Shown here: one piece after another, positions 1,542 through 35,700 of the stretch
Layout of the letters: each line of letters begins with the position of its first letter
Position numbering within the stretch: position 1 is the first letter of the stretch
Assembly: GCA_013288905.1 (NCBI GenBank)
Contig: JABDAW010000007.1
Span: 283 to 40,531, forward strand
Length of the DNA: 40,249 nt
Direction of reading: 5' to 3'
From: Bacteroidota bacterium
Lineage (GTDB): Bacteria > Bacteroidota > Bacteroidia > AKYH767-A > JABDAW01
Program-made: the position numbers and the translations under genes
The notes under the pieces: model-generated
Seen by the model: only the letters and a program-made list of their open reading frames with translations
What the model was told of the DNA's origin: nothing
The model's database searches: none

Positions 1542-2288
1542 ATGAATAAGAATACAAACATAGACGAAAGGCAAGAGAATCTTAACGAATCAGCACCGAC
1601 TCTGGCTGCCATTCCGAAGGTGAATCCTTACGCGGTTCCGATGAATTATTTTGATCATCTGGAAGAGGTTATTTCTAAGAATGTTTTGGCAACGAGTTTG
1701 GAAGCAATTCCTAAGGAAAATCCTTTTGAAGTGCCAGCGAATTATTTTGAGGCTTTGCCTTTGATGATTGAGAAAAGAATTGCTGCCACTGAATTAACCA
1801 ATATCCCCAAAGAAAATCCTTTTGAAGTTCCTGCTCTTTATTTTGATAACCTGGCTGTAATGATTGAAAGGAAGATCGCTGCTACCGAATTAACTGGCAT
1901 TCCAAAGGAAAATCCTTATGAAGTTCCTGCCGGATATTTTGAGCGATTAGATTCTGAAATTATAGATAACGTTCTTGCCTCTCAAAAGAAGAAAGGCTTT
2001 GAATGGATTGGTTTATTAATCAAGCCGAAGTATGCTGTATTCTTTGCTACGCTTGCGCTTGCGGTATTCTTTGTTTTTAAAGTTTCCACTGTTAATCGAA
2101 TGGATAAATATTCTTTTACAGAACAGGAAATCGCAAATTCAGGTGAAATAAATGACATTGACGAAGGAACAATTATTGAAACATTATACTCCGACAACAA
2201 GACGAATGCTCTGCCAAAACAAAAGGATATTGAGAATTATCTTCTCGATAATGATGTTGACGAATCACAAATAACAGGGCAATTATGA
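1542..2288 (+). CDS. Candidate anti-sigma factor with four 32-residue repeats and one membrane helix
   Basis: 248-aa protein with four tandem copies of a motif IPKxNP(F/Y)xVPxxYF starting at residues 24, 56, 88 and 120, an exact 32-residue period. It is followed by basic residues and a single membrane helix (about 163-181, AVFFATLALAVFFVFK), then an acidic C-terminal tail of about 65 residues. The topology (cytoplasmic N-terminus, one helix, periplasmic tail) and the position between an ECF sigma gene and a Spy-like gene fit a membrane anti-sigma factor. No zinc-type anti-sigma motif is visible, so the role rests on context. The stop overlaps the next start (ATGA), implying translational coupling. 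Confidence 0.8.
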   Translation: MNKNTNIDERQENLNESAPTLAAIPKVNPYAVPMNYFDHLEEVISKNVLATSLEAIPKENPFEVPANYFEALPLMIEKRIAATELTNIPKENPFEVPALYFDNLAVMIERKIAATELTGIPKENPYEVPAGYFERLDSEIIDNVLASQKKKGFEWIGLLIKPKYAVFFATLALAVFFVFKVSTVNRMDKYSFTEQEIANSGEINDIDEGTIIETLYSDNKTNALPKQKDIENYLLDNDVDESQITGQL

Positions 2289-2728
2289 AGACTTTAAAAT
2301 TATTAATCGCAATAATATCTGTTAGCTTTTTCACTTCTGCCTTTGCACAAAGGGGGGAGTCGAAAAAGGACGAAATAGAATCTTACAAGATCGCCTTCAT
2401 TACAAAAAGATTAGACTTGTCTCCTGATGAAGCTGAAAAGTTTTGGCCTGTTTATAAACAATATCAAGATGAATTAAAAGAGCTAAGATCAAGGAATAGA
2501 AAGGCTTTGGTGAATGTCTATCAAAATATCGAAACCATGTCGGATGCTGATATTGCAAAAGTCTTGGATGATGAATTGGCATTTAAACAAAACGAATTGA
2601 ATGTTACCAAGAAATATCTTCCACAATTCAAAACCGTATTGCCTGTAAAGAAAGTTGCAAAACTCTTTAAAGCAGAAGAAGATTTCAAGACAGAATTGCT
2701 TAAACGAATGCAACAAAACAGCCGATAA
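2285..2728 (+). CDS. Periplasmic Spy/CpxP-like protein ('sensor of ECF-type sigma factor' type)
   Basis: 147-aa, mostly helical protein with a signal peptide (residues 1-21, cleavage after AFA) and a segment LDLSPDEAEKFWPVYKQYQ (about 42-60) resembling the LTxxQ-type motifs of Spy/CpxP proteins. Proteins of this kind, third in ECF operons of Bacteroidota, are usually annotated as sensors of ECF sigma factors. The start overlaps the anti-sigma candidate by 4 nt and a terminator follows at 2761, so it ends the operon. A periplasmic protein that senses envelope or misfolding stress for the sigma system is the likely role; this is inference from context. Confidence 0.8.
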   Translation: MKTLKLLIAIISVSFFTSAFAQRGESKKDEIESYKIAFITKRLDLSPDEAEKFWPVYKQYQDELKELRSRNRKALVNVYQNIETMSDADIAKVLDDELAFKQNELNVTKKYLPQFKTVLPVKKVAKLFKAEEDFKTELLKRMQQNSR

Positions 2729-2760
2729 ATTCCTTCGATAGATTTACTAACCAACGATAG

Positions 2761-2788
2761 AAAGCCGCATTGAATTCAGTGCGGCTTT
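2761..2788 (+). terminator. Intrinsic terminator of the ECF operon
   Basis: Nine-base arms AAAGCCGCA / TGCGGCTTT (2761-2769 and 2780-2788) with a 10-nt loop and a short T-rich tail, 32 nt after the last operon gene. Confidence 0.8.
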
Positions 2789-2873
2789 TGCTTATTAATG
2801 ATTAACAAAACTATTCTTAAACGAAATAAACACTAACGTTATTCCTTGCAATAACAATCTTCAATCTTGATGT

Positions 2874-3191
2874 GCTTTTTGGAACTTGATTCCTTTTTGT
2901 TCAAAACACATCAAGTTTTGAAGGTACTTGATCAAGTTTGATTCAAAACACGTCAAGATTTGAGGGTACTTGATCAACTTTGATTCAAAGTTGACGAACT
3001 TTGATTCAAAATTAGTCAGGTTTTAAGGGCACTTGATCAAGTTTGAATCAGAATGCATCAAGTCTGAACAAAAAGGAATCAACTTCTGAGAAAAAGGATT
3101 CAGGAAAACTTTGAAAGCAATCAACTTTTTCAGGAAACGAGTGAACATTACCACAAAAGGAATTTGTTCCTTTGTAAAAGGAGCCGTGAAC
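2874..3191. repeat. 21-nt array no. 1 (GATCAAG/GATTCAA words)
   Basis: The gap 2729-3254 holds no convincing gene but contains a tandem array whose units are exactly 21 nt. Unit boundaries fall at 2895, 2916, 2937, 2958, 2979, 3000, 3021, 3042, 3063, 3084, 3105 and 3126, with a 24-nt step at 3147 and another unit at 3171. Units typically end in TCAAG, TCAAC or TGAAC and carry palindromic cores such as CTTGATCAAG and TTTGATTCAAA. Units are strongly diverged yet the phase is kept. No reading frame is open through the whole array: the best minus-strand frame is broken by a stop in the 3021-3041 unit. Confidence 0.9.
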
Positions 3192-3254
3192 CAGTGAGGA
3201 GTTTGGGAAAAAGGGAATGACTAAAGAATCCAATCTAAGTGAGGAAGTATTAAA

Positions 3255-4136
3255 TTAATGAGGAGGAGCGGGTGACTCTTTTTCATAACCTATCTCCACC
3301 AAATCAAAAACAAAGCCTAAGTTCATTCGCAAAATAATTGGGAATTTTTTATTATCTGCAATTAAAAACATATCTTTAGGATTGCCATCTGACTCCACTA
3401 AAAAAGCTGGTATACTAATCTTCTTCCCGTCTTTTATCACATCATAATTCTGATATTTTATTCGTTTATAAACCTGCTCTTTACCATTTGGAGCATATTT
3501 TATTTCGCCAATATCCTTCAATGTTGAATAAACATATTGACTCATCCAAACCGCAGTTCCGTCATCCAAAGTTACATCTCCTTTGACGGTATAATTATAC
3601 TGTCTCGTTCCGTTCATCAGGGCATTCGGAGTCATGATAACCCTCCCATAAAACGAATTCTTGCTACGAAGAATAAAATCGAAGATTACCCGATCCGAAA
3701 CTTCCTTAATCATAATATTTAATCTTATAGAATCTGGTCCTTGAACAATCTTGTATTTAAGGATCATTCCATTGGTAATAGTGAGTGTGTCATCGTTAGT
3801 GTTTATATTTTTATCAATTTCCAAAGTCTCCATCTTAGCCTTTTCAGGATCAGAATCATTATAGATTATGAAGAGTTTTTTTGAGGAATATATCACTCTT
3901 AATGCCTTGCTTCCAACAATATCCGGCGTGCCTAATATCTTTTCGATGTCCTTCCTTCTCATATCAAAATTCAAGCCGTAAGGTAATGCGTCATTGAGAT
4001 GTTTGTTTTTATTATTGGTTCCATCTTTGTAATAAATAATGTCTTCCAAATTATTATTTTGGGACAGCATGATACACATCATTCCCAAATAAGAGGTTAG
4101 AAAAGTGAATGAAAATATATAGATGAACCTATTCAT
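3255..4136 (-). CDS. Exported protein of unknown function, domain order Y-X
   Basis: 293-aa protein with an N-terminal hydrophobic signal or anchor (about 5-25). I do not recognise a named family. It has two parts: Y (about 51-108: LPYGLNFDMRRKDIEKILG, then IIYNDSDPEKAKMETLEID) and X (about 118-285: TNGMILKYKI, AVWMSQYVYSTLKDIGEIK, FPIILRMNLGFVFDLVEI). Both parts occur in the neighbour at 4164-5222, but there X comes first and Y last. Y resembles short sequence-periodic modules of secreted Bacteroidota proteins (F-x-M/R-x4-EKILG). It starts 27 nt after the neighbour's stop, so the two are probably one operon. A 21-nt array lies beyond its 3' end. Confidence 0.85.
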   Translation of the reverse strand: MNRFIYIFSFTFLTSYLGMMCIMLSQNNNLEDIIYYKDGTNNKNKHLNDALPYGLNFDMRRKDIEKILGTPDIVGSKALRVIYSSKKLFIIYNDSDPEKAKMETLEIDKNINTNDDTLTITNGMILKYKIVQGPDSIRLNIMIKEVSDRVIFDFILRSKNSFYGRVIMTPNALMNGTRQYNYTVKGDVTLDDGTAVWMSQYVYSTLKDIGEIKYAPNGKEQVYKRIKYQNYDVIKDGKKISIPAFLVESDGNPKDMFLIADNKKFPIILRMNLGFVFDLVEIGYEKESPAPPH

Positions 4137-7610: not shown

Positions 7611-8411
7611 TTATATTTCCAAGTATTGTAAGTTCTGTAATTCGGGATTATGCTGAATGGAATGATATTCTATTCCCAGGAATACCGGAATGCAGTATAT
7701 CAAGTGGTTTAACGTCCTCCCGACTTCGCGACCTCTATAAACTATATGGTTTAGTGTCCTCCCGAAGTCGCGACCGTGATAAACCAGATGGTTTAGTGTC
7801 CTCCCGACTTCGCGACCATGATAAACCACATGGTTTAATATCCTCCCGAAGTCGCGACCGTGATAAACCACATGGCTTACTTGCCTCCCGAAGTCGCGAC
7901 CGTGATAAACCATTTGTTTTAGTGCCCTCCCGACTTCGCAATCGAAGTAAAACAAGTGTTTTAGTGTCCTCCCGACTTCGGGAACGTAATAAAACAAGTG
8001 TTTTAGTTGCCTCCCGAAGTCGGGAACGTTATAAAACACTTGTTTTAGTTGCCTCCCGAAGTCGGGAGCGTTATAAAACAAGTGTTTTAGTGTCCTCCCG
8101 AAGTCGGGAACGTTATAAAACACTTGTTTTATCTCAATTGCGAAGTCGGGAGGCAAGTAAAACATTCCATTTATAGTATTCCCTAACTTCTGAAAGTTAT
8201 AAATCATTTCATTTAAGCCATTCCTTATGTAATGATTCCATGCAAATCCTTCATTTGACCCGTTCCTGAATTCGGGATAATGATATTGAATTTTATTTGG
8301 GTGAATATCTGAATCCCTCTTTCCTGAAACTTTCATGTTTACTATAATAACGGCATCGGCAGCCTCTTTAATGCACTCTTTTAAATGATTTATGACTTTT
8401 GAATTCTTCAT
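7611..8411 (-). CDS. Possible protein made of 14-residue repeats (array ORF)
   Basis: A 266-aa frame beginning at ATG 8411 after an AT-rich leader like those of neighbouring genes. The first 35 or so residues (MKNSKVINHLKECIKEAADA...) are non-repetitive; the rest is a 14-residue repeat with consensus VFYNVPDFGRTLKH or VYHGRDFGRTLNH, translated from the 42-nt array. No signal peptide, membrane helix or known domain is visible. A period that is a multiple of three keeps any frame lacking a stop open, and the plus strand is also open over most of the array, so the frame alone is weak proof of translation. The unique N-terminus and matching start context are the arguments for it. Confidence 0.35.
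   Translation of the reverse strand: MKNSKVINHLKECIKEAADAVIIVNMKVSGKRDSDIHPNKIQYHYPEFRNGSNEGFAWNHYIRNGLNEMIYNFQKLGNTINGMFYLPPDFAIEIKQVFYNVPDFGRTLKHLFYNAPDFGRQLKQVFYNVPDFGRQLKHLFYYVPEVGRTLKHLFYFDCEVGRALKQMVYHGRDFGRQVSHVVYHGRDFGRILNHVVYHGREVGRTLNHLVYHGRDFGRTLNHIVYRGREVGRTLNHLIYCIPVFLGIEYHSIQHNPELQNLQYLEI
7632..8303. repeat. 42-nt array no. 2 of alternating palindromes
   Basis: The segment CCTCCCGA recurs at 7716, 7758, 7800, 7842, 7884, 7926, 7968, 8010, 8052 and 8094, always 42 nt apart. Recognisable but decayed units extend in the same phase on both sides, for about 16 units. Each unit holds two near-palindromes 21 nt apart, one GC-rich (TCCCGA-AG/CT-TCGGGA) and one AT-rich (AAAACA-AG/CT-TGTTTT, or AAACCA-NN-TGGTTT). 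Both centres are 2 nt and appear freely as AG or CT. Long frames are open on both strands. Confidence 0.95.
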
Positions 8412-8460: not shown

Positions 8461-11400
8461 TTAATGAGTTTGGGTATAAGAAACCGTTGCACCGGAAAGA
8501 ACCGTAACTGCAGAACCAGAGGTACTGCTTGCGAAACGAGCTATCACAGTACCAGTGCCAGAGGCAATCAAGACCCCTTCGATATTACAAATATTACCAG
8601 AGGCAGCACTTGTAGAATTAGAAGCTGTTTGTCCAAATGCCCCTGCTGAAGTTAATGAAGTAGTGGCAGCCGCTTTGGTATAAGTTATCATATAATTAAG
8701 TTGAGAAGCTGTTGCACCACCATTACCGTTAAGCGTCCATTTACTACCTACACTTGTTGCAGAAGTAGTGTAAGGAATCGTGAATCTGAAATAATAGGTA
8801 TTGCCTGCAGTAACCGGGAAGGACAAGCCAGTAATGTCGGTAACGGTGTTCAATGTTGTGGCTTGATTGGCAGTAATAGTTGTGCGAAGAGGGGCTGTAA
8901 TGCCAGCTACAGCAGATTGAACAAATGCAGTTGAGGCAGCTTGCGTGGTGTTTGTACCATTAGCAGCAGTAGGGACAGCGGGCGTTCCTGTAAAGGTGGG
9001 AGATGCAAGATTTGCCTTTGTGCTGATTGCCGTTGATACAAAAGCTGTAGTAGCAATGTTAGTGGAATTATCGCCGGAAGCAGGAGTAGGTGAAGTAGGA
9101 GTCCCTGTCAAGACTGGCGAGGCTAATGGTGCATAAGCAGTTGAAGAATAAGCATTCGTTCCAAGCGTGCCGCCTGCTCCGATATTTAAGATAGAACCAT
9201 CTGTGCCAGATAATGTCAAAGTATTATTGGAAGTGAATGTTTTGCCGCTTCCAATGGTGATTGTAGAGGCAGAGGAGGGTGTCGTGATGTTCACATTATT
9301 TATACTTGTAGCAGTAGCAGCTCCGAGGATAGGTGTCGTGAAGGTCTTGGTACCAGTGAAGGTTTGAGCTTGTTCAAGATTGGCTACTGTATTTCTTGCA
9401 GGAGTTGAGTTGGTATAAAAAATATTCGTGCCATCGAATTCAACGGAGCCTACTACCGGTGCAGTTAGGTTTGTTCCTGGAGTAAGCTTTAATGGTGCTA
9501 CCGAAACAGTACCAGCAGGCATTGTAACTGTTCCTGTGAATGTCGGAGAAGCTATGTTTGCTTTTAAGTTATTTGCAGTTGAAACAACGCCAACAGCCGC
9601 AGTAACAAAGGCATCCGTAGCAACGGCAGTAGTATTATCTCCAGGTGTTTGGGTAACTGCAATGGTTCCTGTTGGAAGCGTAGGAGCACCTGTGAATATT
9701 GGTGAATTTAATGGCGCATAAGATGTTGATGTATAAGCATTGCTGCCCAGCGTGCCACCATTACCTATGTTTAATGTGGAAGCATCAGTACCAGCAAGAG
9801 TCATGGAATTATTCACAGCAAGAGTCTTGGAAGTGGTGCCGCCGGCTACACTGAATCCTGTGGTATTAGCAGTAAGTGATATACCATTAATAGTAGTAGC
9901 TGTAGCGGCTCCAAGCACAGGCGTGGTGAAGGTTTTGATGCCTGTGAATGTTTGTGTTTGTTCTAAATTTGCTATTGTATTTCTTGATGGAGTTGAGTTG
10001 GCATAATACATATTAGTTCCATCAAATTCGACAGCACCTGAAACAGGAGAAGTAAGGTTATTACCCTGAACGAATTTTAAAGGAGCCGCAGAGGTCGAAC
10101 CTGTAGGCAGAATCACGGTTCCGGTGAATGTCGGAGAGGCAATATTTGCTTTCAGGCTATTCCCTGTAGCAACTGCAACAGTAACAAAAGCAGTCGTTGC
10201 AATATCAGTGGAATGATCACCAGGCGATTGGGTAACAGCAATTGTTCCTGAAGGAAGTGTAGGTGTTCCAGTGAATGTAGGGGAAGCTAAGTTTGCTTTT
10301 AAAACCAAAGAATCTTGTTGAATAATTGAAACTGGTTTATTTGCATCAGATGTATTATTGACATTACCCAAACCAACAGCAGAACTGTTTAATGTCTGCC
10401 ATGTTTCATCGCCTCTCCAGTATTGGGAAGTAGTGCCTTGGGCTATGGTTGGCTGTGTGGAATTTATCTGACTTTGAAGATTTTCAAGAGCTGTAAGAAC
10501 GCTGTTTCCAGAAGATAATGGAGTATTTGAACCTACTGAATACCCTGTAAGTGGAGCAGCTACTGCCCTTGCATCTGTGTAATATAAATTAGTGCCTTCA
10601 TTGATATTAGTGGTGGTTAAATTTATAATACCTTGTTGACCATTAACAGAAGTAACATCATTAGATGAAGGTGCTATTTGATAATAGCTTCCATTGTGAA
10701 TTACACTTTCCCCAACAGTAAAGTTTAGCGAACCTGACCCTAAGTTTTGCGTGCCAGCAATAGAAACAATGTATAAATATCCATTAGAACCAGTGCCATC
10801 AGAAATGGCAGGGGTATTGGTGCTTGCATCCCAGGTTCCTTTATAAACCAAGGCACCTGTTGGCAGTTGAGCCGCAGGAACTTTACCTGTATTATCTAAT
10901 GTAGCAACGCCACCACTAACCCCTTCTTGGGAAATTGCAATGTAAGTAGCATCTGTATAAGCCTTTGTTGTCAAATGTGTTGAAAGAGTAGGCGTACCAC
11001 CAATTACAGGGTTGGAAAAAGTCTTTGTACCTGCTATTGTCTGAGAAGTGCTAAGATCAACAAAGTTTTGAGTGGAAGAACCTGTTCCACCTCTTGAAAC
11101 AGGTAATGTTCCGGTCCATCCAAGCGTTAGAGAAGTATTCTGAAGTAATGCTGTGGAAGGAGAGCCGCCAAGAGTAAGAGTGACATTATTATCATTAATC
11201 GATGTAAGTGCTCCTGCTGTGGTATAAGAAGGTGCCGTAGAACTACCGGTAGCATTACCCAAGTAGGTATTTGCCCCAGCATTAGTAAGGGAATAAGACA
11301 ACGCTGGAGTAGTGCCTGGAGTAGCTACTGATGTTGTGAATAATGGAGAAAGATTACCAGAACTAAAGGAGGTAACCGTACCATTATTTACAGTATTTAA

Positions 11401-14400
11401 TGTTGAACCGGAATAGGACAATCCGGAGCCTAAAGTAATTTCGGATACAGCAGTACCAGATGCACCGCTTCCCAATAATTTATTACCTGTCATTGTTTGC
11501 ATTTTGCTGTATGTTACAGCATTGTTTGAAATAGTAGAAGCTAATGAACCTGCTGTGGTTGTTACATCGCCTGTCATTGCTGGGAATCTTCCGGCAGCTA
11601 ATATTCCAGTTGCATTAGAACCTGATAAATCCACAGCACCTGCTGTTATTGCTTGTCCACTTAATGAAAGATAATTTTGACCAGATAAAGTTACATCACC
11701 AGAGTTAGAACCGCTAAGGTTAGAGCCGGTAACAGTGCCTGTAGCAGTTACAGAGGAAGGTGTTATTGCTCCTAAGGTCAATGATATTGCCGGGGTAGAA
11801 GTATTGTTAGAAACCGTTCCTGAAACACCATTCGCGGTAGTAACAGAGACCGAAGTAACGGTACCATTATTTACGGTGTTCAGAGTTGAACCAGAATAAG
11901 ATAGTCCACTGCCTAAGGTAATTTCAGAGACCGCTGTTCCGGTACCACTTCCAAGTAATTTGTTGGTTGTCATTGCCTGCATTTTTGCGTATGTAACAGC
12001 ATTAGCAGAGATCGTAGATGTCAAAGAACCAGCAGAAGTAGTAACATCACCTGCCAATGCCGGGAACCTTGCCGCAGCTAATGTCCCGGTAACATTTGCA
12101 CCTGATAAATTTACAGCATTTGCAGTAATTGCTTGCCCTGTTATAGAAAGATAATTTTGTCCTGATAATGTAACATCACCCGTATTGGATCCAGAAACCG
12201 ATGCAGTCCCTGTAACTGCCAACGTTGGAGTAGAAGATCCTGAAAGAGTAACACCATTAACCGTTGAAGGCGTAATTGCTCCCAATGTTAAACTGATGGC
12301 AGGAGTTGTTGTAGCATTTGATACTGTTCCTGTAACTCCATTAGCAGATGTAACAGAAACAGATGTAACTGTGCCACCTAAGCCAGAAGCAGATAGTGTT
12401 CCGCCGCTTAATGCAAGACCAGTGCCAAGAGTAATGGATTGAACATTTCCTTGGCTTCCAGTACTGTTTCCAAGTAATGTCGTGGCAGGTATTTGTTGAA
12501 TATCTCCAAGGGTAACAGCATTTGGAGAAATAGTAGTATTAAAATCATTCCCTGTCGTAGTAACATCACCAGTATATGCTGGAATTATCCAATTCCATTG
12601 CGAACCATCATCATAATATAATAGTCCTGCATCAATAGAAAGATAAGCCCGATTTGCAGTTCCTTCATTAGGTAAATTGGCATCATTACCTGCACTAACT
12701 GTGTTTAAACCACCATTATTAATTACTGCATTGGTAATGCCAAGCATGCTTTTAACATTAGCAATTGATAGGTCAGAAGCATTAGCTGTACTACCTGTAT
12801 TATTACCCTTAATTGTATTTGCAGCCATTTGTGCAGCCTTTGCATTAGTTACTACATTAGTTGCAATGGTTGTTGCATTCCCAACAGAGGTAACATCACC
12901 AGTCATGTTAGCATTTGTTGTAACAGTTGCAGCATTACCGGTAGTATTTTGATTTAATGTTGGGAATGTACAGTTTACCAAATTCCCTGATGCAGGAGTC
13001 CCAAGTACAGGTGAAATAAATGTTGGAGAAGTTGAAAGTACTATATTTCCTGAACCTGTGGTACCTGTAGCAGAACTTAAATAATTAAGTTGCGTTCCTG
13101 TTGAAGTCACAGATGTTAATCCAAGAGTGAACGGTGTAGGAATAGTAACTGTTCCTGTAAATGTTGGAGAGGCTAATGGTGCATAGGTTGTGCTTGTATA
13201 AGCATTACTTCCAAGTGTTCCACCTGTTCCTATATTCAATGTAGAACCATCTGTTCCTGAAATGGTTAAAGAATTATTTATCGTAAGAGTCTTTGAGGTT
13301 GTTCCACCTGAAATAGAAAAACCTATGGCATTGGCTGTATGTGTAAGTCCATTATATGAAGTAGCAGTAGCAACCCCTAAATTTGGAGTTATTAATGTAG
13401 GGGAAGTATTCATTACAAAAGTAGAACCAGTTCCAGTTTGAGATGCAATGGAAGTAGTATTTCCAGAACTTGTTATAGGACCTGTTAAATTGGCATTTGT
13501 TGTAACAGTTGCAGCATTACCAGTTGTACTTTGATTCAAAGTTGGGAAATCAGCAGCAACTGCAATAGATGGAACTCCTGTTCCAGTAGTGTTTTTTAAG
13601 ATACCGGTGCCTAAACCAGCTAATGATGTATTATTTATCTTACTAACAGTAACTGCACCAGCATTTGTAATTGATGCGTCACCAGTCATTTGAACATCTG
13701 TTGGTATATTACTGCTATTACCGACTAGTATATGAGTATTTGTTAAAGAGGAAACACTACCAGTTGCGCCTGTAGCACCGGTAGCTCCTGTTACACCGTT
13801 TGTTCCATTAGTTCCGGCTGTACCTGTTGCGCCATTGGCTCCCGTTGCGCCGTTTGTTCCATTTGTTCCAGCAATACCCGTTGCACCAGTGGCTCCTGTT
13901 GTCCCGTTTGTTCCATTGGTTCCTGCTGAACCTGTTGCGCCAGTGGCTCCTATTGCCCCGTTTGTTCCATTGGTTCCATTGGTTCCATTGGTTCCAGCTG
14001 TACCTGTTGCGCCAGTGGCTCCTGTTGCGCCATTTGTTCCAGCAACACCCGTTGCACCAGTGGTTCCCGTAGCACCGTTTGTTCCTGCTGTACCTGTTGC
14101 TCCAGTGGCTCCTGTTGCACCAGTCGAGCCTATTAATCCCTGAATACCTTGTATCCCCTGATCTCCTGTTGCACCAGTCGCTCCAACTATTCCTTGAATA
14201 CCTTGTGAGCCTGTTGCTCCTGTTACTCCTTGAATTCCCTGTATACCTTGTATTCCCTGATCACCAGTTGCACCAGTAGCTCCAACAATTCCTTGAATTC
14301 CTTGTGATCCTGTGGCTCCTGTTACTCCTTGAATACCCTGAATACCTTGTATCCCCTGATCTCCTGTTGCACCAGTAGCTCCAACAATTCCTTGAATACC

Positions 14401-17244
14401 TTGTGAACCTGTAGCTCCTGTTACCCCTTGAATACCCTGAATACCTTGTATCCCCTGATCTCCTATTTCACCTGTAGCTCCAACTATACCTTGAATACCT
14501 TGTGAGCCTGTTGCTCCTGTTACTCCTTGAATGCCCTGAATACCTTGTATTCCCTGATCTCCTGTCGCACCAGTTGCTCCAACTATGCCTTGAATACCTT
14601 GTGAACCTGTGGCTCCTGTTGCCCCTTGAATTCCCTGATCTCCTGTTGCACCAGTCACTCCAACAATTCCTTGAATACCTTGTGAACCTGTAGCTCCCGT
14701 TACTCCCTGAATTCCCTGAATGCCTTGTATTCCCTGATCCCCAGTTGCGCCTGTGGCTCCAACTATTCCTTGAATACCTTGTGCTCCGGTAGCTCCTGTT
14801 ACTCCTTGAATTCCTTGAATACCTTGAATACCTTGTATCCCCTGATCTCCTATTTCACCTGTAGCTCCAACTATTCCTTGAACACCTTGTGAACCTGTAG
14901 CTCCCGTCATACCTTGAATTCCCTGATTACCCGTAGCCCCTGCTATTCCCTGTATCCCTTGCACTCCGGTAGCTCCTGTTACTCCTTGAATTCCCTGAAT
15001 GCCTTGTATCCCTTGATCTCCCGTTGTACCAGTCGCTCCAACTATCCCTTGAATACCTTGTGAACCTGTAGCTCCTGTCACTCCTTGAATTCCCTGAATA
15101 CCTTGTATGCCCTGATCTCCTGTTGCACCTGTAGCTCCTACAATACCTTGAATACCTTGTGAACCTGTGCCTCCTGTTACTCCTTGAATTCCCTGAATAC
15201 CTTGTGAACCTGTGCCTCCTGTTACTCCTTGAATTCCCTGAATACCTTGTATCCCCTGATCTCCTGTTGCACCAGTCGCTCCAACAATTCCTTGAATACC
15301 TTGTGAACCTGTGGCTCCTGTTACCCCTTGAATACCCTGAATACCTTGTATCCCCTGATCTCCTGTTGCACCAGTCGCTCCAACTATACCTTGAATTCCC
15401 TGAATACCTTGTATACCCTGATCTCCTGTTGCACCAGTAGCTCCAACTATACCTTGAATACCTTGTGAACCTGTAGCTCCTGTCACTCCTTGAATTCCCT
15501 GAATACCTTGTATCCCCTGATCACCGGTCGCACCAGTCGCTCCAACAATTCCTTGAATTCCTTGTGATCCAGTGGCACCTGTTACACCTTGAATACCTTG
15601 GATTCCCTGATCACCTGTTGAGCCAGTCTCTCCTGCTATTCCTTGTGATCCTGTAGCTCCTGTTACTCCTTGAATTCCCTGAATACCTTGTATCCCCTGA
15701 TCTCCAGTTGCACCAGTCGCTCCAACAATTCCTTGAATACCTTGTGAACCTGTGGCTCCTGTTACTCCTTGAATTCCTTGAATACCTTGGATTCCCTGAT
15801 CCCCTGTTGCACCAGTAGCCCCTGCTATTCCTTGAATACCTTGTGAACCTGTGGCTCCTGTCACTCCTTGAATTCCCTGAATACCTTGTATACCCTGATC
15901 TCCTGTTGCACCAGTAGCTCCAACTATTCCTTGAATGCCTTGAGAACCTGTAGCTCCTGTTACCCCTTGAATTCCCTGATCTCCTGTTGCACCAGTCGCT
16001 CCAACAATTCCTTGAATGCCTTGTGAACCTGTAGCTCCTGTTACACCTTGAATCCCCTGAATACCTTGTATACCCTGATCTCCTGTTGCACCAGTAGCCC
16101 CTGCTATTCCTTGAATACCCTGTGAACCTGTGGTTCCTGTTACTCCTTGAATTCCCTGAATACCTTGTATCCCCTGATCTCCTATTGCACCAGTGGCTCC
16201 AACAATTCCCTGAATACCTTGTGATCCTGTTGCTCCTGTTACTCCTTGAATTCCCTGAATACCTTGTATCCCCTGATCTCCAGTTGCACCTGTAGCTCCT
16301 ACAATACCTTGAATACCTTGTGAACCTGTGGCACCTGTTACTCCTTGAATTCCTTGAATCCCTTGTATTCCCTGATCACCTGTTGCACCTGTCGCTCCAA
16401 CTATTCCTTGAATACCTTGTGAACCTGTAGCTCCTGTTACCCCTTGAATACCCTGAATTCCTTGTATGCCCTGATCTCCTGTTGCACCAGTTGCTCCTAC
16501 TATTCCTTGAATGCCTTGTGAACCTGTGGCACCCGTTACTCCTTGAATTCCCTGAATGCCTTGTATCCCTTGATCTCCCGTTGCACCAGTCGCTCCAACT
16601 ATCCCTTGAATACCTTGTGAACCTGTTGCTCCAGTTACCCCCTGAATTCCCTGAATACCTTGTGCTCCAGTAGCTCCTGTTATTCCTTGATTACCTTGAA
16701 TACCTTGTATCCCCTGAATTCCTTGTATCCCCTGTAATCCCGTAGCTCCCGTCATACCTTGAATTCCCTGATTACCCGTAGCCCCTGCTATTCCCTGTAT
16801 CCCTTGCACTCCGGTAGCTCCTGTTACCCCTTGAATTCCCTGGATACCTTGTATACCAGTAACTCCCTGAATACCTTGAATCCCCTGCAAACCTGTTGCA
16901 CCGGTAGCACCCGTTGCTCCCTGAATGCCTTGAGGTCCGATGGCGACTATCCAAGCCGTCCCATTAAAATAATTAAAGACATTTGTGGTGGTATTATAAA
17001 TAAATAAACCGGTCGCGGGCAATGCGATGGAATCCCTCTGAACAGTGGTCATCCGTGGTATCAGCATTCCTTTTGAGGTGGATCGAACTTCTAAAATGGA
17101 CGATGAATCCGGTGTAAAAGTTGTCGCTCCGATGCCCATACTTTGGGCAAATAAATTTTGATTGAATGCAATAAACAATAAGATTGCTACTATTACATTC
17201 TTACAATTCCATTTCTGATTTTTTAAGTTGTTCATTTTGTTCAT
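8461..17244 (-). CDS. Giant collagen-like / phage-tail-fibre-like surface protein
   Basis: About 2,927 aa from the ATG at 17244; upstream in-frame starts (TTG 17331, ATG 17292) would put about 29 or 16 residues before the signal peptide, so 17244 is preferred. After the signal ([18 protein letters not shown]) comes a head of about 70 residues ([28 protein letters not shown]), common at the start of Bacteroidota fibre proteins. About 1,060 residues of uninterrupted Gly-X-Y triplets follow, mostly GIQ, GAT, GVT and GDQ in 33-residue blocks. The remaining ~1,765 residues are low-complexity beta repeats, including modules of the type [13 protein letters not shown] ... TTxATTAFVxxAV, characteristic of phage tail fibres. 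No T9SS tail is visible at the C-terminus ([10 protein letters not shown]). Probably a secreted fibrous adhesin. Confidence 0.93.
13757..16931 (-). repeat. Collagen-triplet coding repeats (99-nt blocks)
   Basis: Within the giant gene, about 3.2 kb encodes Gly-X-Y triplets. The dominant block is 11 triplets (99 nt), repeated more than 20 times with small block deletions or duplications that always keep the triplet phase. Near the 3' side (13757-14130) the blocks change to GTNGTNGATGATG-type triplets. Assembly collapse or expansion is possible here. Confidence 0.92.
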
Positions 17245-17371
17245 ATTGATAGTTTGATAATACGATTTAAAATCTATTTTTACGTTAACCATTTTTTTAA
17301 GTTGTTGTTTTATATTAATATAATATTTCAAAGTTCGATGGGAAGTTTGCCAGAATAATTTAGAAGGGGTT

Positions 17372-18055: not shown

Positions 18056-18275
18056 TTTTTATTTATTGAATTCCGCCAAAAATGGAATGTCATAAAAGGA
18101 AAATTTAAAGAAGTACCACTACAGATAACCAATTCTTCTCCCATCATGCTTTTATTACATTCCTGAAAAAAGGGAATGTGATAAAAGGAAAATTTAAAGA
18201 AGTGCAAGACTGATTACCAGTTTTATCATCATCATCCTTTTATTGCATTCCCCAAAAAGGGAATGTCATAAAAGG
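18056..18275. repeat. Three tandem copies of the CATC/GATG-type hairpin element
   Basis: Copies at about 18056-18099, 18144-18187 and 18233-18275. Each has a left arm ending CTTTTAT, an inner arm such as GCATTCC, an A-rich loop, the inner return GGAATGT and a right arm ATAAAAGG. The first two are followed by the same flank (AAATTTAAAGAAGT), so a unit of about 89 nt was duplicated. The third copy has the loop CCCCAAAAAGGG seen in the separate elements at 34323, 35825 and 35950. Confidence 0.85.
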
Positions 18276-18299
18276 AAAAAGTAATTACGAATGCTGGAT

Positions 18300-18362
18300 T
18301 ATAAATAATGAATGAAGAACATTTTATAATTTATAATTCACCATTTATAATTCATCATTCCT
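18300..18362 (-). repeat. Short-word element abutting a stop codon
   Basis: Directly after the stop of the fibronectin-like gene, the minus strand repeats words of the form ATGAATTATAAATG, then inverted words (TTCATTCATT), enough for an AT-rich hairpin. The same word family follows the nrdA stop at 21068-21104. It may end transcription. Confidence 0.6.
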
Positions 18363-19071: not shown

Positions 19072-19536
19072 CTAAACGAATACATATGGTATAGAAAAAG
19101 GATAGAACATTCCACCAATTTCTCCAGAAGATTTTGAACAAAGGAAATAGATTTCAGAAACCCTCCCAGACGATAAACCAATCTCTGGAGAGATTCCTTG
19201 ACTTTCCCTTGAAAATCTGGAATTTTCCCTGGAAGAATCAGAATTTTCCCTGGAAAAACTGGAACTTTCCCTGGAAGAATCGGAATTTTCCCTGGAAAAA
19301 CTGGGATTTTCCCGGGAAAAATCAGAATTTTCCCTGGAAGAATTGAAATTTTCCCTGTAAAAACTGGAATTTTCCCTAGGAAATCCGGAATTTTCCAGGG
19401 AAAGTAATTTGGAAGCTCCTGACAATGAAACAAACTCTGGACAGATTCCTCCAAAAGCTGAAATGAATAACCCACCTCCCATTCCTTCCGAAGAAATTGC
19501 TGCACCTTTTGCCTGAATCATTAGAGAAAATTTCAT
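19072..19536 (-). CDS. Possible array ORF with 7-residue repeats
   Basis: A 154-aa frame: about 46 Gly/Ser-rich residues (MKFSLMIQAKGAAISSEGMG...), then heptapeptides of the type NSSFSRE / NSDSSRE translated from the 21-nt array, then a unique tail. A second minus-strand frame (19065-19505) is open through the same array and would encode heptads of the type KIPVFPG. Which, if either, is translated cannot be told from the sequence. The unique N-terminus favours the 154-aa frame slightly. Confidence 0.3.
   Translation of the reverse strand: MKFSLMIQAKGAAISSEGMGGGLFISAFGGICPEFVSLSGASKLLSLENSGFPRENSSFYRENFNSSRENSDFSRENPSFSRENSDSSRESSSFSRENSDSSRENSRFSRESQGISPEIGLSSGRVSEIYFLCSKSSGEIGGMFYPFSIPYVFV
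19196..19411. repeat. 21-nt array no. 3 (TTTTCCCTGGAAAA palindromes)
   Basis: The words TTTTCCC or CTTTCCC start at 19202, 19223, 19244, 19265, 19286, 19307, 19328, 19349, 19370 and 19391: ten units exactly 21 nt apart. Each core is a near-palindrome TTTTCC-NN-GGAAAA followed by a 7-nt variable spacer (ACTGGAA, ATCGGAA, ATCAGAA, ATTGAAA). The phase is perfect although most units differ. Confidence 0.95.
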
Positions 19537-21067: not shown

Positions 21068-21104
21068 CAATTTATCATTTATAATTCATCATTTATAATT
21101 CCCC
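21068..21104 (-). repeat. ATTATAAATGATGA words directly after the nrdA stop
   Basis: Between the nrdA stop and its terminator the minus strand repeats ATTATAAATGATGA / ATTATAAATGATAA with a 14-nt period. The same words follow the stop of the gene at 18363. Confidence 0.7.
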
Positions 21105-26614: not shown

Positions 26615-27102
26615 GTGTAATTAATAAAATCTAAGCTCCCAAAAGCACAAAATCCCCCTTGAATAAGATACCCCTTGCCAAAATCCACTCCCATTACCCT
26701 CCTGCCAAGTAGAATTCTATTAATCAAAAAAGCTATGCTCTTGTTTATGCTCACTATGGTCTTGTTTATTCGAGGGTATGACTTGTTTATCCTTACTAAG
26801 GACTTGTTTATGCTTACTGATGCCTTGTTTTTTCGAGGGTATGGCTTATTTATGCTTACCGAGGTCTTGTTTATGACTACTAAGACCTTGTTTTTGGAGG
26901 GGTATGGCTTATTTATGCTTACTAAGGTCTTGTTTATGACTACTAAGGACTTGTTTATGCTTACTGAGGTCTTGCCAATGGTCTTTTTAATGATACCGAA
27001 ACCCGCTCCCTGTATAGCTCCAAGCCCTAAAAGTGTGTTTTTGAAGAAAATCACACCACCCCCTCCAATTCGCATCCTAATTTCCTCAAATCGTGTTCTC
27101 AT
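26599..27102 (-). CDS. Possible array ORF with 7-residue repeats
   Basis: 167-aa frame whose first 45 residues are unique and Gly/hydrophobic-rich (GGGGVIFFKNTLLGLGAIQG). Heptads of the type VSINKSL / VVINKTL / SINKPYP follow, translated from the 21-nt array, then a unique tail that ends 16 nt inside the RES gene start. The overlap with a downstream start and the unique ends make translation more plausible than for the other arrays, but the plus strand is also open over most of it. No known domain. Confidence 0.4.
   Translation of the reverse strand: MRTRFEEIRMRIGGGGVIFFKNTLLGLGAIQGAGFGIIKKTIGKTSVSINKSLVVINKTLVSINKPYPSKNKVLVVINKTSVSINKPYPRKNKASVSINKSLVRINKSYPRINKTIVSINKSIAFLINRILLGRRVMGVDFGKGYLIQGGFCAFGSLDFINYTCLIY
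26740..26991. repeat. 21-nt array no. 4 (CTTGTTTATG words)
   Basis: Twelve units exactly 21 nt apart begin at 26740, 26761, 26782, 26803, 26824, 26845, 26866, 26887, 26908, 26929, 26950 and 26971. Each has a conserved front (CTTGTTTATG) and a variable back. A GGGTATG back recurs every third unit (26761, 26824, 26887), a 63-nt higher-order repeat. No indel breaks the phase. Confidence 0.97.
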
Positions 27103-30365: not shown

Positions 30366-30430
30366 TATTATAAAATTTTAATTCAAAATATTCCCAATAA
30401 AAACTTCGCATCTGCCAAAAAAGATCAAAA

Positions 30431-30556
30431 ATAGCGTAACCATCCCAAAGCTTTGCGTAACATTCCTCAAAGATAGCGTAACATTGTTGATAAATAGCGT
30501 AACAAGGTTAAAGAATAGAGTAACATTTATCGAAAATAGCGTAACAAAGTTGAAGA
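30431..30556. repeat. 21-nt array no. 5 (ATAGCGTAAC words)
   Basis: Six units exactly 21 nt apart, GCGTAAC or GAGTAAC at 30434, 30455, 30476, 30497, 30518 and 30539. The first 10 nt (ATAGCGTAAC) are conserved and the next 11 vary. A minus-strand frame of 62 codons (30378-30566) is open through it and begins immediately after the TAA of the upstream gene, encoding heptads of the type NVTLFFN; I do not count it as a proven gene. Confidence 0.93.
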
Positions 30557-30566
30557 AAACAGTCAT

Positions 30567-35469: not shown

Positions 35470-35700
35470 TGAAAAGAACTTTTCTGTCCGTTCCTTTCCA
35501 ACGCATCGAACCAAAAACTTATACCCAAGCCATTCCAATAGAAAGAAACAGGGTAAAAAGTTATACCCAAGTCATCCCAATGGAAAGAGGCGAGGTAAAA
35601 AGTTCTACCCAAGCAATTGCCATCCATAGCAGAGAGCCAAAAAGTTACAACCGGAGCTTTTTTAGGGATTTGTTTTTCCTGAAAAGTTGTACCCAAAAGA
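35470..35700. repeat. 42-nt array no. 6 (AAAAAGTTATACCC words)
   Basis: The GTT/CTT of AAAAAGTTATACCC-type words falls at 35476, 35518, 35560, 35602, 35644 and 35686, always 42 nt apart. Middle units share CCAAGxCATxCCAATxGAAAG. A minus-strand frame of 123 codons (35379-35750) runs through it with 14-residue repeats of the type FYPVSFYWNGLGIS; I do not count it as a proven gene, though its ends are unique sequence. Confidence 0.92.

What the first reader, a model, noticed from the sequence alone, without database searches (positions are those of the whole stretch)
2874..3191. Array 1 keeps the 21-nt phase without an open reading frame
Fourteen or so units stay in register, but stops interrupt every frame on both strands when the array is read as a whole (for example TTTTGA and CTTGAT contexts). 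If heptad coding were the cause of the phase in all arrays, this one must be decayed; otherwise the constraint acts on DNA or RNA. Its cores are palindromes (CTTGATCAAG, TTTGATTCAAA).
Basis: seen in the sequence. Interest (0 to 1): 0.7.

Follow-up and report, generated by a model that had tools for sequence, protein, structure and literature searches.

The report
Phased 21-bp non-coding repeat array
This is one of hundreds of non-coding repeat arrays that sit between genes in one genus of uncultured Bacteroidota: they keep an exact 21-base (two DNA turns) beat, stay in place between species and are evenly spread along the chromosome, yet their sequence is completely replaced, which suggests the cell needs their shape rather than their letters.

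Summary
Units 2878-3150 (13 units) lie in one 21-nt register, far beyond shuffles, and stops interrupt all six frames (one minus-strand frame by a single stop). The array is not decayed heptad coding and not a local oddity. In 1.51 Mb of this genome there are 164 intergenic arrays with best period 21/42/63/84, and 156 in 0.73 Mb of a sister species. Units are mostly unrelated and no short motif is shared. Variation shows no codon-position bias. Beside the orthologue of the upstream gene, the sister species has a 21-nt array with an unrelated unit (CCCCACGACATTAATATGTTC). Across the genome, array positions are conserved (odds ratio about 8), but 23 of 25 co-located pairs are no more alike than random pairs. 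Arrays are over-dispersed (one per about 4-6 kb) and absent from 116 kb of a sister genus. A wedge model predicts that the 21-bp period itself, with almost any unit, adds up curvature. Best reading: a DNA-level 'constant length, variable sequence' satellite (class described by Subirana and Messeguer) that probably acts through helical geometry in chromosome architecture. The class is known; conserved, evenly spaced positions with complete sequence turnover appear new. Function is inferred, not shown.

The parts
2878..3150 (.). Array 1 core: 13 units of 21 nt in one unbroken register
3151..3171 (.). degenerate edge unit (CCACAAAAGGAATTTGTTCCT); the following unit 3172-3192 is also degenerate
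2926..2937 (.). perfect 12-nt palindrome ACTTGATCAAGT inside a unit; second copy at 3031-3042
2882..2903 (+). arm of an inverted repeat (22 nt, 95% complementary) carrying a non-consensus variant; partner 3065-3086
3065..3086 (-). partner arm of the inverted repeat
2760..2789 (+). terminator-like hairpin after the upstream gene; also present before the array in sister genome G002
2285..2728 (+). upstream gene (147 aa, no Pfam hit), conserved in synteny with transketolase and an ECF sigma factor; its 73% identical orthologue in G002 is also followed by a 21-nt array
3255..4136 (-). convergent neighbour gene (293 aa, no Pfam hit); its orthologue in G002 lies on another contig, away from the array
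7705..8227 (.). sister array, period 42 (core)
19203..19403 (.). sister array, period 21/42
26733..26974 (.). sister array, period 21/63
30425..30557 (.). sister array, period 21
35513..35646 (.). sister array, period 42

Best explanation
Array 1 is a non-coding DNA satellite of the constant-length, variable-sequence kind, one of a genus-wide set. Shown: period fixed at 21 bp (multiples 42, 63, 84), unit sequence free, position in intergenic gaps conserved between species, spacing along the chromosome more even than chance. Inferred: 21 bp is the smallest whole number of base pairs holding a whole number of B-DNA turns (2 x 10.5), so every unit faces the same side of the helix and small unit bends add up, whatever the unit sequence. 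The array would then work as a curved or face-aligned segment, bound or wrapped by a protein that reads shape or spacing rather than sequence, or acting as a bend or supercoil element at roughly one per 4-6 kb. Slippage and unequal exchange in register, sometimes with strand switching, would replace the letters while keeping the phase. I give the non-coding satellite layer about 0.9 and the architectural role about 0.45.
For: Genome-wide: of 252 repeat regions in 1.51 Mb, 172 have best lag 21, 42, 63 or 84; 164 are intergenic in G000 and 156 in 0.73 Mb of G002. Successive unit matches: 1237 at 21 nt, 3 at 20, 3 at 22, none at 18 or 24. 320 arrays form 247 sequence clusters, 197 of them single, with no common short motif. 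Same site in G002 next to the 73% identical gene and a similar terminator: a 21-nt array with an unrelated unit. Position: 26 of 41 array-bearing gene sides also bear one in G002, against 46 of 259 otherwise (odds ratio 8, p 6e-9), and 21 of 25 against 20 of 68 with gaps of at least 100 nt in both. Sequence of co-located pairs: mean identity 0.53 against 0.52 for random pairs, 2 of 25 above the random 95th percentile. Spacing: distances under 2.5 kb are 2.6% (G000) and 9.5% (G002), against 16-26% under nulls matched for gap size, orientation and gene length (0 of 500). Curvature by a wedge model: arrays 0.114 against 0.066 for other intergenic DNA; ideal arrays of the same units at 21 give 0.157, shuffled units at 21 give 0.154, period 20 gives 0.086, 22 gives 0.114, 18 or 24 about 0.02; array 1 is at the 94th percentile of arrays.
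Against: No binding, transcription or chromosome-conformation data exist for this uncultured organism. The wedge parameters were written from memory and the curvature is a prediction; the units themselves are no more curved than shuffled units. No composition period of 10-11 nt is seen within units. A mutational ruler that makes 21-nt duplications would also give a constant period. About 40% of arrays are significantly palindromic, which geometry alone does not ask for. Stop-creating changes are slightly depleted (1732 against 1923 expected, ratio 0.90; controls 0.96-1.02), so translation of a minority is not excluded. Orthology rests on 222 reciprocal pairs from partly sampled genomes.
Confidence: 0.55

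Rival explanations
1. Neutral satellites. A 21-nt array arose once in the genus, copies spread to other gaps, and slippage in register kept the period while the letters drifted. No function.
For: 50 clusters of related arrays, some at several places in one genome; gain or loss at orthologous gaps (90 vs 373 nt, 67 vs 338 nt, 293 vs 63 nt); full turnover of letters at conserved sites; nearly limited to one genus in the samples.
Against: Position conserved after control for gap size and spacing over-dispersed, neither of which free spread predicts; no source found for one recently gained array beyond one 75% partial match; no excess of Y1 transposases or reverse transcriptases in the genus.
Confidence: 0.25
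2. RNA-level element: the arrays are transcribed and fold into hairpins, as stabilisers, terminators or small-RNA sponges.
For: Array 1 folds far better than shuffles (z -5.2); 39% of arrays are palindromic at p<=0.05; 52-nt satellites of B. coagulans are reported as transcribed (PMC8161180, PMC8625621).
Against: Over a sample of 116 arrays the fold excess is modest (median z -0.35, 20% below -2); arrays occur in divergent, tandem and convergent gaps alike; array 1 lies after a terminator-like hairpin; DNA folding of array 1 is as strong; hairpins do not require exactly 21 nt.
Confidence: 0.12
3. Decayed or living heptad-coding repeat (a small repeat protein).
For: Period is a multiple of 3; one minus-strand frame of array 1 has a single stop; open frames slightly above a dinucleotide null (3.99 vs 3.50 of 6) and stop-creating changes slightly depleted.
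Against: No codon-position contrast; the G002 array at the same site encodes unrelated peptides and its unit is open in 4 of 6 frames; 20- and 22-nt steps occur but no 18 or 24; no Pfam match for two array-borne ORFs.
Confidence: 0.04
4. Binding arrays for sequence-specific regulators, each array for its own dimeric protein.
For: Local 14-bp dyads in about 40% of arrays, with a roughly 7-nt spacer.
Against: Hundreds of different units, no common motif, and no sequence conservation at orthologous sites.
Confidence: 0.04

Closest known systems
Constant-repeat-size, variable-sequence non-coding bacterial satellites (Subirana and Messeguer; PMC8161180, PMC6749651)
   Same: Tandem, intergenic, non-coding; repeat size fixed at 20-21 nt in some Bacillus and other bacteria; many families with unrelated sequences; partial conservation between strains; authors note two turns of helix and propose nucleoid stabilisation or small RNAs.
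   Different: Here in Bacteroidota; one quantum of 21 with multiples; density 123-214 per Mb by TRF, against at most 23 per Mb for bacteria in their 2019 table (different program); no species-wide short motif, whereas they report one in Bacillus; position conservation and even spacing shown here.
Minisatellite within a MITE of Porphyromonas gingivalis (PMC4596501, title and abstract only)
   Same: Bacteroidota; minisatellite outside ordinary genes.
   Different: Those lie within one transposable-element family with inverted-repeat ends; here flanks share no common end sequence at the array edge.
REP palindromic repeats (PMC3733652, abstract only)
   Same: Extragenic, palindromic, many per genome.
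   Different: REPs share sequence across the genome; these do not, and Y1/RAYT-type transposases are few and mostly truncated or broken in the genus.

Membership tests
Constant-size variable-sequence bacterial satellites | at least four regular tandem repeats of 10-200 nt | tested here: met
   13 units in register
Constant-size variable-sequence bacterial satellites | one repeat length dominates in the genome (20-22 or 52 nt) | tested here: met
   128 of 185 TRF satellites in G000 and 137 of 156 in G002 have period 21
Constant-size variable-sequence bacterial satellites | sequences of different arrays unrelated, several families | tested here: met
   247 clusters among 320 arrays
Constant-size variable-sequence bacterial satellites | non-coding | tested here: met
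   no codon-position contrast; stops in all frames of array 1
Constant-size variable-sequence bacterial satellites | short species-specific sequence present in all repeats (reported for Bacillus, not clearly defining) | tested here: not met
   best 5-mers in only 15 of 128 (G000) and 17 of 126 (G002) non-redundant units
Constant-size variable-sequence bacterial satellites | transcription (reported for B. coagulans) | not testable with these tools
   no RNA data
Heptad-coding repeat gene | open frame with codon-position-dependent variation | tested here: not met
MITE or transposon-borne minisatellite | shared ends flanking the arrays | tested here: not met
   shared flank pieces are dispersed repeats at variable distance, many away from arrays; no common edge k-mer
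REP/RAYT system | shared palindrome across the genome and an intact RAYT | tested here: not met
   units unrelated; Y1 transposase matches few and mostly truncated or broken in the genus

The most novel reading that the evidence does not exclude
The arrays are sequence-free architectural sites. The chromosome of this genus carries one 21-bp-phased segment about every 4-6 kb at conserved intergenic positions, and selection acts only on helical phase and position while the letters are freely replaced, a bacterial analogue of sequence-independent chromatin positioning or domain-boundary elements.
Probability: 0.35. Interest if true: 0.87.

Novelty: new variant of a known kind. Interest (0 to 1): 0.66.

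Why it matters
Constant-length, variable-sequence satellites are a published puzzle without a known function. Here one genus offers about 100-200 per Mb, with even spacing and orthologous sites where letters have been replaced but position and phase kept. That separates geometry from sequence and makes the 'two helical turns' idea directly testable by re-spacing arrays and by mapping supercoiling and DNA-bound proteins.

Tried and rejected
Common flanking element: two dispersed repeats were found near some arrays (17 and 32 copies), but 4 and 21 of these lie away from arrays, so they are not array ends. Common edge motif: the best, ATGTCTCC, is in only 14 of 640 flanks. Universal motif in units: none. 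Helical subperiod of 10-11 nt in composition: none. Rfam: only a tRNA in the window and four sampled loci. RAYT, reverse transcriptase and HU counts do not set the genus apart. Neighbour genes of array 1 have no Pfam family. A first ortholog comparison failed through a command error and was redone. Whole-unit inversion as the general source of palindromes: 8 of 108 arrays with non-palindromic units hold an inverted unit, null 1 of 108, so it is real but not general.

Full report
What is there. The window is part of a 2.64-Mb metagenome-assembled genome (58.7% complete, 209 contigs) from Bacteroidota. Array 1 lies between two convergent genes: a 147-aa gene downstream of an ECF sigma factor (2285-2728, +) with a terminator-like hairpin at 2760-2789, and a 293-aa gene (3255-4136, -). 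Thirteen 21-nt units from 2878 to 3150 stay in one register without an indel, and the next two are degenerate. The periodic match is far above shuffles (0.525 against a maximum of 0.361 in 500). All six frames are interrupted, with stop counts of 4, 10, 5 on plus and 6, 1, 12 on minus. The array also folds on itself as a whole.

It is one of hundreds. A self-match scan of 1.51 Mb of the same genome found 252 repeat regions, 172 of which have a best lag of 21, 42, 63 or 84. Lag 21 is also enriched inside the 42, 63 and 84 arrays. Of these, 164 are intergenic here and 156 in 0.73 Mb of a same-genus genome, G002. By TRF with at least four copies the densities of all satellites are 123 and 214 per Mb, against 5 per Mb in 1.39 Mb of other Bacteroidota and 8.6 in a same-family genus, G003, where none has period 21 (no 21-phase array in 116 kb). 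Another same-genus genome, G001, also has them. The 320 arrays fall into 247 sequence clusters, share no short motif, and keep steps of exactly 21 (1237 of 1243 single steps).

Not coding. Column variability shows no codon-position contrast in the arrays (3.8% at p<=0.05), while repeats inside genes do (37%). Open frames are expected in nearly any such array (98% of shuffled units). A small depletion of stop-creating changes (0.90) and a small excess of open frames remain unexplained.

Sister-species test. The orthologue of the upstream gene in G002 (73% identity) is followed by a similar terminator hairpin and then by a 21-nt array with the unit CCCCACGACATTAATATGTTC, unrelated to array 1. 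The contig ends inside that array, and the downstream neighbour lies on another contig. Genome-wide, 26 of 41 array-bearing gene sides also bear an array in G002, against 46 of 259 sides without one. The effect persists when only gaps of at least 100 nt net of arrays are compared (21 of 25 against 20 of 68). Of 25 co-located pairs, 23 are no more alike than random array pairs. In one similar pair (L012/L226) the unit palindrome changed from TCCTGAAGTTTCAGGA to TTCCAGAATTCTGGAA, keeping most of its dyad symmetry. Gains or losses also occur.

Spacing along the chromosome. Distances between neighbouring array-bearing gaps have CV 0.53 (G000) and 0.47 (G002), with 2.6% and 9.5% under 2.5 kb. A null that draws gaps by size, orientation and gene length gives CV 0.72 and 0.59, with 16.5% and 23.8% under 2.5 kb (0 of 500 as low for the short distances). 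All gene orientations host arrays.

Geometry. With a dinucleotide wedge model (parameters from memory), arrays are more curved than other intergenic DNA (0.114 against 0.066). Ideal arrays of real units and of shuffled units at period 21 are equally curved (0.157 and 0.154), and the curvature falls off at other periods (20: 0.086; 22: 0.114; 18 and 24: about 0.02); array 1 is among the most curved. This is the simple reason why length could be fixed while sequence is free. It is a model result, not a measurement.

Mechanism proposed. Shown by sequence: period, non-coding nature, position conservation, even spacing, letter turnover. Inferred: turnover by in-register slippage or exchange, with occasional strand switching (inverted units in 8 of 108 arrays with non-palindromic units; inverted arms with a shared rare variant in array 1). 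Inferred: a geometric or architectural role. Palindromes in about 40% of arrays, as local dyads of about 14 bp, may reflect strand switching or a dimeric binder.

Known context. Subirana and Messeguer described non-coding bacterial satellites with constant repeat size (20-21 or 52 nt) and variable sequence, noted that 21 nt is two helical turns, and suggested nucleoid proteins or small RNAs (PMC8161180; PMC6749651). A J. Bacteriol. 2020 paper of theirs was not held. Array 1 fits that class. New here, as far as these searches show: positional conservation with full letter turnover, over-dispersed spacing, very high density in one Bacteroidota genus, and absence of a shared motif.

Limits. Genome pieces are partial (57% of G000, 19% of G002). 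Genes were called with a home-made hexamer caller. Arrays break assemblies (19 of 46 sampled G002 contigs start within 40 nt of an array), so lengths are lower bounds. Function is inferred.

Noticed in passing
window 8461-17331 (-): A 2956-aa ORF that carries the TRF repeat block 13769-16878 (periods 9, 18, 27, 36, 45, 54, 99), read on the minus strand as collagen-like Gly-X-Y repeats (for example [10 protein letters not shown]).
   Followed up: no
window 1716-1943 (+): In-frame 96-nt (32-aa) repeats in the gene after the ECF sigma factor (probable anti-sigma factor); a similar 96-nt repeat is in the G002 orthologue region (L197 1087-1374).
   Followed up: partly
L200 11974-12051 and 12068-12164: Two dispersed intergenic elements: a hairpin CTCCTGAAAGGTTTTTCTCCTTTCAGG (17 copies) and a longer element containing TGCGACCTCTCGGGAGCAACAATAAAAGG (32 copies), in both species, near and away from arrays.
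   Followed up: partly
window 18329-18359 and 21069-21101: 14-nt AT-rich repeats (TTTATAATTCACC type); period 14 is the next intergenic class in G000 (9 regions).
   Followed up: no
window 18062-18279: 89-nt tandem repeat (2.5 copies) with the inverted motif TTTTATTACATTCC...GGGAATGTCATAAAAGG.
   Followed up: no
L102 3210-4184 (-): A different Bacteroidota genome has a 42-nt array inside a 324-aa regulator-like gene, in frame (EKRDGINSFTEAIP repeats), a real coding counterpart.
   Followed up: partly
L109 about 1210-1480: An intergenic-looking 21-nt array (CATTGAACGGAATGCAATACC type) in another Bacteroidota MAG (palsa_968), so the class is not strictly limited to this genus.
   Followed up: partly
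G002 contigs: 19 of 46 sampled contigs start within 40 nt of an array, so these arrays break short-read assemblies.
   Followed up: yes
all array consensus units: Slight excess of open frames and depletion of stop-creating changes (ratio 0.90, controls 0.96-1.02), with arrays richer in G+C (0.40-0.43) than other intergenic DNA (0.33); unexplained.
   Followed up: partly
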